Below are positions 36,201-42,200 of a stretch of DNA of 64,000 bases, piece after piece; within the stretch, counting starts at the first letter, position 1; each line of letters begins with the position of its first letter. The notes beneath the pieces are model-generated. The model was not told the origin of the DNA, made no database searches, and worked only from the letters and a program-made list of their open reading frames with translations. Source of the DNA: Anarhynchus alexandrinus (Eukaryota > Chordata > Aves > Charadriiformes > Charadriidae). The stretch covers positions 4,978,770 through 5,042,769 of the forward strand of contig VUYV01000045.1 of assembly GCA_008711295.1 (NCBI GenBank). Reading direction: 5' to 3'. Position numbers and translations under genes: made by a program.

Positions 36201-39200
36201 TCACATGCTAATGAGATTTACTATCACTAAAATATTACAAATTCCCTTCTACTGCAAATTAAATATTCCAAAATCTTTTCATATGCTACATGGATCTATA
36301 TCTAAAGGATGAAAGCCAGCTACTTCTATGCTCAGTCTACCAACTAAAGATCTAATAGATAAGATGATTTGGTTTTTTCTACATCTAACTTAATGGCTTG
36401 ACATACTGTAGTTGACCTCAGGTTGACACAGGCAGCCCAGCTCAGTGAAGGAGTAACACAAACAAGATAAAAAGACTGTAGGAGAGCTAGTAAGTTGATT
36501 CAGTGGTGGGTAAGGGGTGGTGTTTTGCCTTGTCCCAGATGGTAAATTGGCCAAAGAATGAACATGTGCTGAAACTGATGACTGATGGTATGTCACAGAA
36601 GCAGCTGGCATTTGGGACTGCATGAAAGAGTGATGGATTGCTGCTGCAGGTGTTGTCAGAGTGCCCTTCAGGACAGTCTCTTTGTGCTGAATAATAATTC
36701 CACTGTATGAAGATGGCAAAGGTATTGCATCATTCATTAGTGCAGTTCTTGATGACTCCAAAATAGAAGAGAGATTTGTAAAACGTCCATAATCAGCATT
36801 TTCAAAATTCAAAGCATGAGTACTAACAATATTCACAGAAGACATTCCTTCTCTGTGCTTGCTAAAGGATCCATGAACCTTCCCTTCTGAATCCCATTCG
36901 GAAAGCCTCAATACGTTTGTTGATGTCAGAACAGCAGAATTCCTTATGTCTTCATTATCACCAATAATTTCTTGTTCTGCTGCCCATAGAGAGTATCTCA
37001 GACTGTCCCCATGATTTTCAATGGAATTTTGTCCTACAACAGTTAGATGATTTCTTGGTGTTACTGTTGTTGGCGAGCTTAACTCTGCTACATCCCACTG
37101 AGGGATCAGGCTTGGAGAAATTGTACCAAGATGGTTCTGAAAACTTTGTGGGAGTGGAGGTGTGGAGTAGCTGTTAGGAGGTACACTGACTCTGAATTTT
37201 GAGTCTGAATGAAGAAGGTGCCTTAATTCCAAAGACAATGTCATTGGAAGGAAGTCAGAACTCACTGAATTGATGTTTTTTAAAAAAACACCTGCATCTA
37301 TTTGAACTTTACTTCTTGCTTTATCAATAGTATTTGTTACAGCATCATTCGCTGAAAGACTTTGAGACTGCAGTGATCCATGTGTTCTCGCACTGTTTAT
37401 CAAACTCTCAACTGCTGTATTGATCAAGAAAGCAGCTTGGCTGTCCCTCGAACATGAAGGCTGGGTTCCTGAATGTGTTGGAAGGACAGAAACAAGCCGC
37501 TGCCCATTGTTTAGGAAGGTCGTGTTGGTCTGACCTCTTACTCTGTCAGTTCCATTTTGCACGTGCAAACTATCCAATATCATTAATTTTTCTGTGGAGT
37601 TTTCAAGTATCTTATTAAAGGGACTTACCTGTACCTGTACAGAGGGTTGACTCAAAGGTGCTTCCAGGGAAGGGAAAGGAAAATCAAAATAAAATTCACT
37701 GTTTGAAGACATGGTTAGGTTTGCAAAGTTCATTGTTGACTGCAACAATGTCCTGTCATTACTTTCTGAAATTCTCTTTGAAAGGCCTGGAATAAATGAA
37801 CCAAAGATTTGTGTTTCCAAAGCTGATGCATGACTAGAGAAATTCATTTCTTCAGCCCTGAGACGTAATAATCTAATGGCAGATGTTTGTTCAGAGATAC
37901 TGTCAGACTTCGCTGGTGAACTAATGGAAGGCAATCTCTCTGTTGGGGAAGAAAGCAGTTTATTATATGAGAGCCACCAATTTTCTGATGGCTCCCCAGA
38001 AAACACTTGAGACGCTTCTTTCAAATGATAGGAAACAGTCCAGAAACTTGCTGTCAAAGAAGGGGAAATATCGACATATTTTGTTGGAAAATCCAAGTAA
38101 CCTGAGTCCCAGGAGTTGCCAACTCTATTCATGTTCTCCAGCTCTAATATGGAAAAAGATGACTCTTCATTTTCATTACTGTCATGAAATACATCTAAAT
38201 TGTTCTCCAGTACTCTATTTCTGAGGGTCTCACTTGGCTTTTGAAAATATACTGAATGTTTTAAATAATGAGACCAGAAATTGCTATTAGATATAAATAT
38301 GCTGTCACTTTGCAAATAAACGTCAGTCAACGGTTGTTGATAAACAGGCAGGGTCGTTACAACGTGCTTAAATGCTGAGCTTGTCCAGCCTGTTCCTACC
38401 AGAAGTGTTGAAAATGTTAGTGGCTCTCCACTGTGTCCTAGGACCGAATCTGTCAGTTGGATATCAGGCATAAGTTTCGTGTATGCTTGTTTCATGTTTT
38501 GAAAAAAAGTTGTTGGGTTTGCACGTGGAGTCTCCCCAGACGTTAAATTTGTAATGCCTCCTGAGGGCTGTTCCTTAATGTGCATGGATTTTCTAAACTG
38601 GAAGTCACTGTTTGCTGCTAACACAGAAAAAGTTTTCCTATCAGCATTGCCTTCTATCATTTCCAGGTAAAAATCTTCAGGTGCGAAGTCCAGCAAATCT
38701 AGCCTACTTTTTTGGAACGATGACTTCTGTTCCGTAGGCAATATAGATAAGCTAGAAAGAGAATGATGTCCATCGTCTTGAATGTCAGAGATGATCTGAT
38801 GATGAAATACAGTCTCACTCCACCAACTCACAGGCTCCAAGACGTTGCTTATATGCATGAAATTGGTTGTGCTGCTGCTGGAGGATGAAATCCACACCGT
38901 TTCTTTTTTGTGTTCGTAAGCAGTGCTGCTGCTGCTCACGGGAGAGCGGAACGCTGACTCAGAGTCAGACTGAACCAGCCCATCTGCCAACGTCCGTGCT
39001 AGCGCTGCGTTAGGGCTTCTGCTTTGAAGAGGGACTGCTGCACTCAGAGAAGGCTCTGTAACAGCATCAGCTGCATCAGAAGTGCCACGAAATGAACTTC
39101 TAGAAGAATTCCAAATATCTTCATTTGGTGACTGATTCATCACAGTATTATCTAGGTTGATTTTTTCTGTAAAAACAGCCAAGCTATCGTTGCCGGTCTC

Positions 39201-42200
39201 CTCAGAAGCAGCTGATGTGGGCATAGTTGGAAGAAACAAGCTGTATGTGTTTTTTCTCCCTGGGTTCTCATCTGCTGAGTTTTTACTGAAACGAAGAGGC
39301 CTTTGTTTCACTGGCCAAATAATTGGGGTTGAGATAATTCCTATGGTTTTGACCCCTTCTATCCTAGACTCTTGCTGCCTCTGTGGTCGTGAATGGGAAG
39401 ATTCAGGTGAATTTCTCTTCATTCTGAAGATAACCGCAGCAGGAAGTCTGAATTCCTGCAGGTCTGTGTGTAGCAAGCCACATAGTTAATGGATTAAAGA
39501 AAATATATGCAACTTCACTGTCCATTCTTGGCTGTCTGCTCTTGGTGTAAAAATCAACTTTACCAAGAGTGGAAAATGATGTGAGTTAGCTGAGGGAAAG
39601 TTTAATTTGCTTCTACTGCAAATGAATTTGGCTTATTTTTCCTCGTCTTTCTGCTTTCTCTTGGGAGTTTCAAAGCCAAACAAAGGACTTAATTGTCCAG
39701 TTTTTATTCATACTAATATTAATAAGGCATTCAGTTCCTTCTGTAGTTACAAAAATCAGAGTGAACTGCTCATGGAGAACATAGAGTGAGTAGCTCCACA
39801 AAAAGAAAAAAGCAAAATTTGGAAGACATTTTCAATATTTTCTTTTTAATTCTACAGCTTAGTAAATCCAAACAAGCTGAATTCAGATAAATTCTTTCAA
39901 ATTGTCTACTGTACTGCCTGGTTGCCAATGTACAAGAAATGGTCTGCCAAGAGAAAAAATACTCCAAGAAGTTTAAATCCTACAGTAACAACTGATGCAT
40001 TTGGAAAAAAAGAAAAAAAAAACAACCAAAAACAAACCACAAAAAACTCTCAGATTCTAATTTATTTCAGTGGAGCACACTGAAAAAAACAAATCTTTAA
40101 AAAAAATACCTTTAAGCCTCAGATGAAAATTGCAGAAATCTTTGTGTTGTTAATAATGTTTAACAACTATCTGTAACAAACTAATAAATATTTTAGCAGT
40201 GCCTCACAAAATGATGCTCAGTCTCTAGGAGACAGTGATATCATAGAATTTGAGAAAACCTCAAAAGAAATCCCTGCTTTTTTTTTTCCTGTGCTAATAA
40301 TAGGCTCATTTACTACCTTATTTTTTCCCTTAATCGTTCTAAATGAAAAGTAAACGATATCTGATACTGTCAACATTTTCCCTAGTAAAGTCTGATCCAG
40401 CTCTTCTTGAAGTCAGTGGAAAGATTCCTGTTGACTCAGTGGAAGTGGCTTTGCTCCATAGGAACGATTCCACTTGGCTCCTGCACCCGACTAGTGAGGA
40501 ACAGACAATCCCAGCATACTACCACCCTGGCTGCACAAGCTCGAGCTACACAATGCCTCATACTCTGCAGCCTTAAAATATTTCAACAGCACGGTTCTTT
40601 TTGGACCCTTTTTTTTTTTTTTTTTTTAAAATCCCTCTCCCTTTCCTCATTCTTTGCATGGGTAAACACAGCGGGTGACACAAAGTGAGTTCCTTTCATG
40701 CAAGAGGCAGGTAAACATGATACAAATAAACACCGAGTTTGGTTCTGTTCTCATTTACACCATCCTCACATGGTCCAGTGAAGTTACTCCTGATTTATTT
40801 CAGTGCAAATGAGATCAGAACTGAGGCGTGACCCTTGACATTATGGTACTATGAAAAACACACCTTAAAATACAACAAAATTTGCTCTAGACACAGTACA
40901 AGGAAAAATGTAACACAGGATTTCTTACCATTGTTTGGCTTATCGTTTCTATTAGTATCGGGCATGTTAGTGGTGACAGTGGGTGGTGTAGGAGTAGTAG
41001 CATTTACAGTAGCTGGTAATAAAGATGAGAAAGAGGTGAACTTGAATGAAATATGAATGTTAATAAGGTAAGACAAAATGGGAACAATGCATGACAATGT
41101 AAAATGAAACCATCTACACACACTGCCGTAAATGTTAAATAAACACATTATTTTTTCTGCACAAAGTGATGAATGGATATGAACTAAGGTCCCAATCCTG
41201 CAATCTTCACTTTCACTGACTTCAGTGGGAGTTTTGCCAGTGTAAGGTTTGCAAGATCAGTCCTGTACTGCTTTCATAAACTCAAAATCCTCTTATGAGA
41301 GCTTCAGATCCAAACAGCTGTGCAAAGACCAGAAAACAGATCTTATGAGTTCTAAGACGCATGCACTTAGAATATTGCTTGTGAAAAGAATAATTGCCCC
41401 TACTCAGAGACTGAAGATGACAAACAAATGCAAAACTAAAACGCCCATGTAAGGATCCAATTAACTCCATTGAACTCCATACAATAAAGAGAATTGAAAT
41501 CAGACTTGGAATAATTGAAATGGAATATATATTTTGAAAGCTTCATGTAGGATCTCAGCTGTACTGTTTCCACTGACACTAACAGGAGTCACCCCACACA
41601 ACCCTGGCAAATGTATCCCAGGAGGACCAGCTAGAACACTTTTCAAAATCAGAGTGAGGAGCCAAAACTGTAAATTTCCCCCTCAGAGGACTGGGAGGGT
41701 ATACATGCTAGAGGAATTCAGAGATCATGCCACTAAATTTTCAAATAATAGTCTGGAAATTAATTTAATTTTATCTAGCAACTCCCAGGGAATGCAAATC
41801 CACTCACTGTCAGATTTCTTTTTTCCTGAAAACTCTTTAAAATCGGAAGGTTGATGCAGTATAATCCCACAGTGTTACAAGGCTTTTGCAGATTTTGACT
41901 AAGAACTAACCTGGAAAGGTTAAGCAATCATATTTTAGGCAAGAAATTGCACTTTTGATTTTTTGTGAGGTTGTATTAACTAACCTTTTGAGTCTGAAAG
42001 TCATAAATTCAGGTCTCAGCTTAGGGAGCAGGTTCATGTTCATATTTCAGTGAAACAAGAAACTTAGGGAACCAGAAGAAAGAGTTGGACACTGCAGCAA
42101 ACAAGTTCTAACTGGGAAAGTGAGTATATAAAGTGACACCCTATAACACAAAAAAGCTCTTCTTCCATGTAACTTCAGGGCTATGTTGTCTGAGAAACGT

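What the first reader, a model, noticed from the sequence alone, without database searches (positions are those of the whole stretch)
36390..39485. A ~3.1 kb mucin-like open frame in ADGRG6, in phase to be a cassette exon between PTX and SEA
Seen: one open frame of more than 1000 codons on the gene's strand, exactly between linker exon 2 (40929-41012) and SEA exon 1 (33641-33720). It is Ser/Thr-rich with at least nine sequons, in A+T-rich DNA where chance frames rarely exceed about 150 codons. A phase-1 donor at 36407 and phase-1 acceptors at 39463, 39211 and 39166 all give lengths divisible by three and match both neighbouring junctions. Known: human ADGRG6 as I know it lacks this segment, and linker splicing here is known to alter ADGRG6 conformation. 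Inference: a long-stalk isoform would hold CUB-PTX far from SEA-GAIN, break the closed form and change force sensing.
Basis: partly seen in the sequence, partly recalled or inferred. Interest (0 to 1): 0.93.

Follow-up and report, generated by a model that had tools for sequence, protein, structure and literature searches.

The report
Giant stalk exon in reptile-bird ADGRG6
A receptor that guides nerve and heart development, ADGRG6, has in birds, turtles and lizards a huge extra exon coding for a floppy thousand-residue stalk that could lengthen the receptor, let its tip be cut off, or end it as a secreted protein, so the human and fish protein may not be a full guide to these animals.

Summary
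The 1031-codon frame lies in ADGRG6 between the linker exon (41012-40929) and first SEA exon (33720-33641); as exon 39463-36407 (1019 codons, phase 1 at both ends) it keeps the frame. It is far beyond chance (longest frame in 40 shuffles: 172 codons). Protein databases hold it: 34 named relatives from 27 bird, 2 turtle and 2 lizard species, none named from elsewhere. Ten are receptors of 2143-2394 residues, so it is annotated; eight paper searches listed no description of it.

New here: (1) the stalk is predicted disordered and only moderately Ser/Thr-rich; (2) its first 57 residues are the more conserved part and carry a furin-type RXKR motif in 33 of 33 proteins covering it; (3) models of four bird species share an internal donor (38708 here), giving a 252-residue stalk; (4) six models, from four birds, a turtle and a lizard, read past the weak donor to a stop, predicting a secreted CUB-PTX-stalk protein. 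Splicing, cleavage and function are not shown by RNA or experiment. Skipping could not be seen, because every protein search used the stalk.

The parts
36407..39463 (-). Giant exon of ADGRG6: 3057 nt, 1019 codons, phase 1 at both ends; stalk between PTX-linker and SEA, predicted disordered
   Evidence: Open frame; orthologues; 24 of 26 readable upstream joins use 39463 and 15 of 34 named models join stalk to SEA at the 36407-type donor
39294..39463 (-). Conserved N-terminal island of the stalk (57 residues, [23 protein letters not shown]...[16 protein letters not shown])
   Evidence: Identity to the window, island against rest of stalk: 31 birds mean 90% against 74% (higher in 31 of 31), Caretta 75/43%, Pelodiscus 75/41%, Podarcis 62/28%
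39414..39425 (-). RMKR, furin-type proprotein convertase motif
   Evidence: R-X-K-R in 33 of 33 proteins (the window's own and 32 relatives) that cover the place, X = M 28, V 4, K 1; 20 proteins that start later set aside; cleavage not tested
38708..39463 (-). Short-stalk version of the exon (252 codons) ended by an internal phase-1 donor at 38708
   Evidence: Same join (..QKS|GLFYRI) in models of Columba livia, Cuculus canorus, Agelaius phoeniceus and Falco cherrug; donor score 5.6
36408..36464 (-). C-terminal tail of the stalk with conserved cysteines (C, then CxC) just before SEA
   Evidence: Columns C1008, C1018, C1020 invariant in the 25 sequences aligned; outside that set Numida P0037 lacks one
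36390..36406 (-). Read-through of the weak donor: MSSH and stop, giving a predicted secreted CUB-PTX-stalk protein
   Evidence: Six named models with a CUB and a PTX-type domain run past the donor to a stop and have no 7TM (P0014, P0020, P0028, P0037, P0047, P0055; in P0047 the second domain is listed as PF13385, not PF00354); donor 36407 scores 3.7 against 8.0-10.3 for six neighbouring donors
40929..41012 (-). Linker exon just upstream ([27 protein letters not shown]), likely the counterpart of the known alternatively spliced exon 6
   Evidence: equation with human/zebrafish exon 6 is by position and Ser/Thr content (PMC6954182, passages), not tested
33641..33720 (-). First SEA exon, downstream partner
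   Evidence: 15 of 34 named models join the end of the stalk to it
49125..49745 (-). Pentraxin exon of ADGRG6
   Evidence: Pfam PF00354 E=7.2e-9
55450..55791 (-). CUB exon of ADGRG6
   Evidence: Pfam PF00431 E=1.6e-25

Best explanation
This is a true coding exon of ADGRG6, present in birds, turtles and lizards, that adds a disordered stalk of about 1019 residues between the CUB-PTX head and the SEA-HormR-GAIN-7TM part. Most likely it works by uncoupling head from body. With the stalk, CUB and the disulfide loop could no longer be held on HormR, so the closed form would not be kept, and the head could be presented far from the membrane or released. The exon offers several outputs: full stalk, a 252-residue short stalk through an internal donor, and a read-through end that makes a secreted CUB-PTX-stalk protein. 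Shown here: the frame, the phases, the orthologues, protein models of each form, the conserved motif; disorder by prediction. Inferred: that these forms are made in useful amounts, that RXKR is cut, and the effect on conformation and signalling.
For: Single open frame in phase with both neighbours. 56 database relatives, 34 named, all named ones birds, turtles or lizards (counted). Identity to the window 44-46% (two turtles) and 31-32% (two named lizards) over 880-986 aligned residues (the search table gives 42 and 40% for the turtles). Conserved island and RXKR in 33 of 33. End types among 34 named models: stalk to SEA 15, short stalk 4, read-through with near stop 8, Pogona read-through with a longer tail 1, partial or irregular 6. 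AlphaFold2 puts 1031 of 1031 residues under pLDDT 50. Zebrafish: a 23-residue Ser/Thr-rich insert in this linker gives open-like forms and more signalling; human and mouse receptors are cut by furin in SEA (PMC6954182, passages). The zebrafish N-terminal fragment has roles of its own (PMC12886893, abstract).
Against: No RNA evidence was available; the isoform models are automatic and may extend frames. Of the 15 models that join stalk to SEA, five start inside the stalk and two lack a large part of it. Weak acceptor (3.9) and donor (3.7) may mean low inclusion. Skipped forms were not looked for. A low-confidence structure from 25 sequences is weak proof of disorder. Protein databases hold open frames only, so lost or broken copies would not show; and searches scored only the 7985 candidates sharing most words.
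Confidence: 0.7

Rival explanations
1. Release cassette: the exon's main job is to bring in the RMKR site. A proprotein convertase cuts at the top of the stalk in the Golgi, so the CUB-PTX head is set free and the receptor left at the surface has a disordered stalk with a conserved new N-terminus (NSPESS...[16 protein letters not shown]).
For: R-X-K-R kept in 33 of 33 proteins across birds, turtles and lizards while X varies (M, V, K), inside the more conserved part of the stalk.
Against: Motif presence is not cleavage; the island may be kept for another reason such as binding. The SEA exons already hold a furin-type site.
Confidence: 0.3
2. Terminal exon: the main product is the read-through mRNA that ends inside the intron, a secreted CUB-PTX-stalk protein acting as decoy or diffusible ligand; the long receptor is minor.
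For: Weak donor (3.7); read-through models with CUB and a PTX-type domain in Oxyura, Numida, Guaruba, Camarhynchus, Pelodiscus and Pogona.
Against: 15 of 34 named models join the stalk to SEA. Of 32 relatives that run past the donor, 31 keep Ser-Met there, which fits a kept GTATG donor, and P0057 does not. Poly(A)-signal-like words lie downstream but were not tested against chance.
Confidence: 0.25
3. Plain spacer: a fast-evolving disordered linker that is tolerated, with length alone mattering and no release.
For: In the ten sequences compared the stretch stays between 937 and 1079 residues while identity falls to about 31%; predicted disordered.
Against: Conserved island and tail cysteines.
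Confidence: 0.3
4. Chance open frame, retrocopy or separate nested gene.
For: Some annotations list it, alone or with CUB-PTX, as a separate uncharacterized protein (Haemorhous, Fulmarus, Nestor, Acanthisitta, Dromaius).
Against: Length beyond all shuffles, one match in the own genome, phase match, orthologues joined to ADGRG6 exons in birds, turtles and lizards.
Confidence: 0.02

Closest known systems
ADGRG6 (GPR126) of human, mouse and zebrafish with the exon 6 (+ss/-ss) switch
   Same: Same gene, same linker between PTX and SEA, insertion of Ser/Thr-rich residues by splicing
   Different: 23 residues in zebrafish and 28 in human (PMC6954182, passages) against 1019 or 252 here; the passages I read mention a furin site in SEA but none at the head side of the linker
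ADGRG4 (GPR112) stalk
   Same: Long, probably disordered stalk at the same place, between PTX and a predicted SEA domain (PMC10687090, passages)
   Different: Human ADGRG4 stalk is about 2000 residues and scores as mucin there; none of the stalk searches listed ADGRG4. In this genome the ADGRG4 locus has no frame over 150 codons between its PTX-like frame (called by eye) and TM exon
Shed or secreted ADGRG6 N-terminal fragment
   Same: Free CUB-PTX head; the fragment has roles in the fish heart (PMC12886893, abstract)
   Different: There from proteolysis or a mutant allele; here also predicted from an alternative mRNA end

Membership tests
ADGRG6 | CUB followed by PTX domain | tested here: met
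   PF00431 1.6e-25, PF00354 7.2e-9
ADGRG6 | 7TM of secretin/adhesion type on the same strand downstream | tested here: met
   PF00002 2e-18; orthologues named ADGRG6
ADGRG6 | SEA, HormR, GAIN between PTX and 7TM | tested here: inconclusive
   SEA exon matched to named ADGRG6 models across the junction; other exon peptides read by eye; three downstream exon pieces had no Pfam match above cut-off (best GPR128_GAIN_subdomA, 18.7 bits against 22)
Cassette exon | Same phase at both ends, length divisible by three | tested here: met
Cassette exon | Inclusion in transcripts or models | tested here: met
   15 of 34 named models join stalk to SEA; models only, no RNA
Cassette exon | Skipping in the same species | not tested
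   All three protein searches used the stalk, so forms without it could not appear
Mucin-like domain | Dense Pro/Thr/Ser (40% is a recalled yardstick) | tested here: not met
   No 100-residue window reaches 40%; 7.4% of 50-residue windows do; S+T 23.4%, P 5.8%
Mucin-like domain | O-glycosylation shown or scored | not testable with these tools
   No predictor at hand
ADGRG4-type stalk | Sequence relation to the ADGRG4 stalk | tested here: inconclusive
   No ADGRG4 among the hits, though its length (human, recalled) fits the first two; no ADGRG4 stalk was compared directly; no giant frame at the ADGRG4 locus of this genome
Furin substrate | R-X-[KR]-R in a stretch outside folded domains | tested here: met
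   33 of 33; disorder predicted
Furin substrate | Actual cleavage | not testable with these tools
   Needs expression

The most novel reading that the evidence does not exclude
In birds, turtles and lizards one exon turns ADGRG6 into a multi-output system: no insert (tethered closed head), short or long stalk with a conserved convertase motif that frees the CUB-PTX head and leaves a receptor with a conserved new N-terminus, or a secreted CUB-PTX-stalk ligand from mRNA read-through. Head and 7TM signalling would thus be separable at the RNA level in a whole vertebrate clade.
Probability: 0.3. Interest if true: 0.78.

Novelty: new variant of a known kind. Interest (0 to 1): 0.6.

Why it matters
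ADGRG6 acts in myelination, ear, heart and skeletal development, and how its head and 7TM parts share the work is an open question. A natural form with a thousand-residue stalk, a conserved motif that may release the head, and a predicted secreted form would give a way to separate tethering, force and ligand roles. It also warns that models built on fish and human structures do not cover birds and reptiles, and that some databases list the stalk as a separate unknown protein.

Tried and rejected
Rejected: chance frame, retrocopy, separate gene. Rejected: the stalk's tail as a copy of the exon-4 disulfide loop ([14 protein letters not shown] against [14 protein letters not shown] looked alike): 0.056 of 3000 shuffles score as high, at least two other windows of the stalk score higher, and the turtle tail shows nothing (0.91). 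Rejected: relation of the stalk to the Ser/Thr/Pro-rich 268-codon frame at this genome's ADGRG2 locus (169 of 200 shuffles scored as high for the window's stalk, 64 of 200 for the Caretta stalk). Nothing in Pfam, nothing convincing in PDB sequences (best E 0.56), no match in viral contigs. A fold search was not run because no residue of the model reaches pLDDT 50. dN/dS could not be computed: no orthologous DNA was reachable. Poly(A)-like words downstream of 36390 (AGTAAA 36222, ATTAAA 35988 and 35680, AATAAA 35213 and 34875, and others) were listed but not tested against chance.

Rows dropped: the 35-row alignment was made from stalks over 900 residues that a start pattern could find, less six rows (P0003, P0004, P0010, P0027, P0036, P0041) that were duplicates, partial or irregular; P0054-P0057 came later and are not in it. 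The 25-row alignment took 25 of 57 proteins. One search compared ten.

Splice scores use a table of approximate vertebrate site frequencies that I recalled; they rank sites only.
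Full report
WHAT WAS CLAIMED AND WHAT IS THERE. The minus-strand frame 36390-39485 has 1031 codons. No other frame in the window exceeds 251 codons. In 40 dinucleotide shuffles of the whole window the longest frame was 172 codons, and in 300 shuffles of the segment 239. The gene is ADGRG6: CUB, pentraxin and 7tm_2 match Pfam, and orthologous proteins carry that name. 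Splicing seven exons from CUB to the second SEA exon gives a single open frame both with and without the big exon, because the junctions on both sides of it have phase 1. The exon that fits the orthologues is 39463-36407, 1019 codons.

IS IT CODING. Three protein searches (with the window's stalk, with the Caretta stalk, with the first 120 residues of the Pelodiscus stalk) gave 56 different relatives besides the window's own: 51, then one more, then four more. In some searches only the 7985 candidates sharing most words were scored. Of the 56, 34 have an organism name and 22 do not. The named ones come from 27 bird species (including Dromaius, Gallus, Oxyura, Columba, Falco, Corvus), two turtles (Caretta, Pelodiscus) and two lizards (Podarcis, Pogona). 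No named hit lies outside these groups. The searches reach only relatives that share short words, so absence in mammals, amphibians and fish is suggestive, not proven. Identity to the window's stalk is 83% (Bubo), 68% (Dromaius), 46% (Caretta), 44% (Pelodiscus), 32% (Podarcis) and 31% (Pogona) over 880 to 1006 aligned residues. CUB-PTX in comparison is 77% (Caretta) and 69% (Pogona). Databases list open frames only, so broken copies would be missed; still, a thousand-residue frame kept across birds, turtles and lizards is not a product of chance. The stalk gave one match in the window's own genome, its own place.

WHICH FORMS EXIST IN ANNOTATION. Among the 34 named proteins, 26 have a readable join from the upstream exon to the stalk: 24 use acceptor 39463 (23 from the linker exon, P0003 from the exon before it), P0039 starts four residues earlier and P0048 joins far inside. 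By their other end the 34 fall as follows. Fifteen join the end of the stalk to SEA; of these P0031, P0042, P0043, P0046 and P0053 start inside the stalk, and P0044 and P0048 lack a large part of it. Four, from Columba livia, Cuculus canorus, Agelaius phoeniceus and Falco cherrug, use one internal donor, 38708 here, giving a stalk of about 252 residues. Eight run past the 36407 donor to a stop a few codons on; five of these, from Guaruba, Camarhynchus, Oxyura, Numida and Pelodiscus, have a CUB and a PTX-type domain (Pelodiscus is listed with PF13385 in place of PF00354). The Pogona model does the same with a longer tail. Such proteins would have the head and the stalk but no membrane part. Six are partial or irregular: P0010, P0013 and P0017 stop short, P0035 runs on, P0004 joins the end of the stalk to an odd sequence, P0036 leaves the stalk early. 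Ten of the 34 are 2143-2394 residues long with CUB and 7TM domains in the search tables. These are automatic models. That several isoforms of one gene usually rest on RNA reads is my general knowledge of the NCBI pipeline, not a result here.

ANATOMY OF THE STALK. AlphaFold2 with 25 sequences gives pLDDT under 50 for 1031 of 1031 residues. Composition is S 15.9%, T 7.5%, P 5.8%, with 12 N-glycosylation sequons; no 100-residue window has 40% P+T+S, though 7.4% of 50-residue windows do. So it is a Ser/Thr-rich disordered stalk, but not a dense mucin. The first 57 residues stand out: identity to the window there against the rest of the stalk is 90% against 74% as a mean of 31 bird proteins (higher in 31 of 31), 75/43% in Caretta, 75/41% in Pelodiscus and 62/28% in Podarcis. 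In 40-residue blocks the tail end is nearly as well kept, and in Pelodiscus better. The island holds R-X-K-R, a furin-type motif, in 33 of 33 proteins that cover it (32 relatives and the window), with X = M in 28, V in 4 and K in 1; 20 proteins that begin later were set aside. Then comes GIISTPI[IV]WPVKQRPL with few changes. The tail has three cysteine columns that are invariant in the 25-sequence alignment; Numida, not in that set, lacks one.

HOW IT LIKELY WORKS. In zebrafish Gpr126 the ectodomain is closed; a disulfide loop in the linker makes contacts that hold it so, and a 23-residue Ser/Thr-rich insert gives open-like forms and raises signalling (PMC6954182, passages). An insert of 252 or 1019 disordered residues after that linker should free the head far more. 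This is inference. If the RXKR motif is cut, the head leaves altogether and the receptor keeps a stalk with a conserved new N-terminus; if the donor is read through, the head is secreted with the stalk. The fish N-terminal fragment acts on its own in keeping the heart wall intact (PMC12886893, abstract), so a free head could be a signal. Acceptor 39463 (3.9) scores below four of five neighbouring acceptors and donor 36407 (3.7) below six of six donors, which fits regulated use; but the first SEA exon's acceptor is as weak (3.3), so this is soft evidence. Of 32 relatives that run past the donor, 31 keep Ser-Met there, which fits a kept GTATG donor.

COMPARISON. The nearest known design is ADGRG4, with a stalk of about 2000 residues between PTX and a predicted SEA domain in human (PMC10687090, passages). 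None of the three searches listed an ADGRG4 protein. In this genome I placed ADGRG4 (contig C6) and ADGRG2 (contig C18) by their TM exons. Between a PTX-like frame, called by eye, and the TM exon, the ADGRG4 locus has no frame over 150 codons on the gene's strand; ADGRG2 has one Ser/Thr/Pro-rich frame of 268 codons with no sequence relation to the ADGRG6 stalk. So a long stalk at this place may be carried by different paralogues in different clades; this is one genome only.

NOVELTY. The exon is already in public protein models, so its existence is not new to databases. Eight paper searches listed no paper whose title or opening abstract describes it; only 10-12 of 98, 39 and 4582 papers were listed. 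I read passages of PMC6667449, PMC13197933, PMC10687090, PMC6954182, PMC11475505, PMC8584163 and PMC6347800, and the abstract and section list of PMC12886893. The library holds open-licence papers only. I rate it a new variant of a known kind.

LIMITS. No RNA, no orthologous DNA, no skipped form seen, no cleavage test.

Noticed in passing
L017 6589-7371 and L020 1769-2572 (contig C18 of the own genome): The ADGRG2 locus (TM exon best PDB match ADGRG2, E 1.9e-52) has a pentraxin-type frame upstream (match to the ADGRG4 PTX structure 8b55, E 1.5e-14) and a 268-codon frame with 45% P+T+S between it and the TM exon. That the pentraxin frame belongs to ADGRG2 is not proven.
   Followed up: partly
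L021-L028 (contig C6 of the own genome): The ADGRG4 locus (TM exon best PDB match ADGRG4) has a PTX-like frame, called by eye, but no frame over 150 codons between it and the TM exon, unlike the giant stalk of human ADGRG4.
   Followed up: partly
window 32079-32090 (-): REKR in a frame among the SEA exons, probably the furin-type SEA site described for mammals and birds (PMC6954182, passages); a stalk-bearing receptor would then have such a site at each side of the stalk. The splicing of this piece was not checked.
   Followed up: no
P0010, P0013, P0017, P0023, P0035: In Fulmarus, Nestor, Acanthisitta, Haemorhous and Dromaius the stalk, alone or with CUB-PTX, is listed as an uncharacterized protein.
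   Followed up: no
window 13223-13663 (-): Frame that looks like the end of a CR1-type LINE reverse transcriptase (label recalled, no call).
   Followed up: no
window 44493-45041 (-) and 44497-44973 (+): Two overlapping frames of 182 and 158 codons on opposite strands in a GC-richer patch; cause not examined.
   Followed up: no
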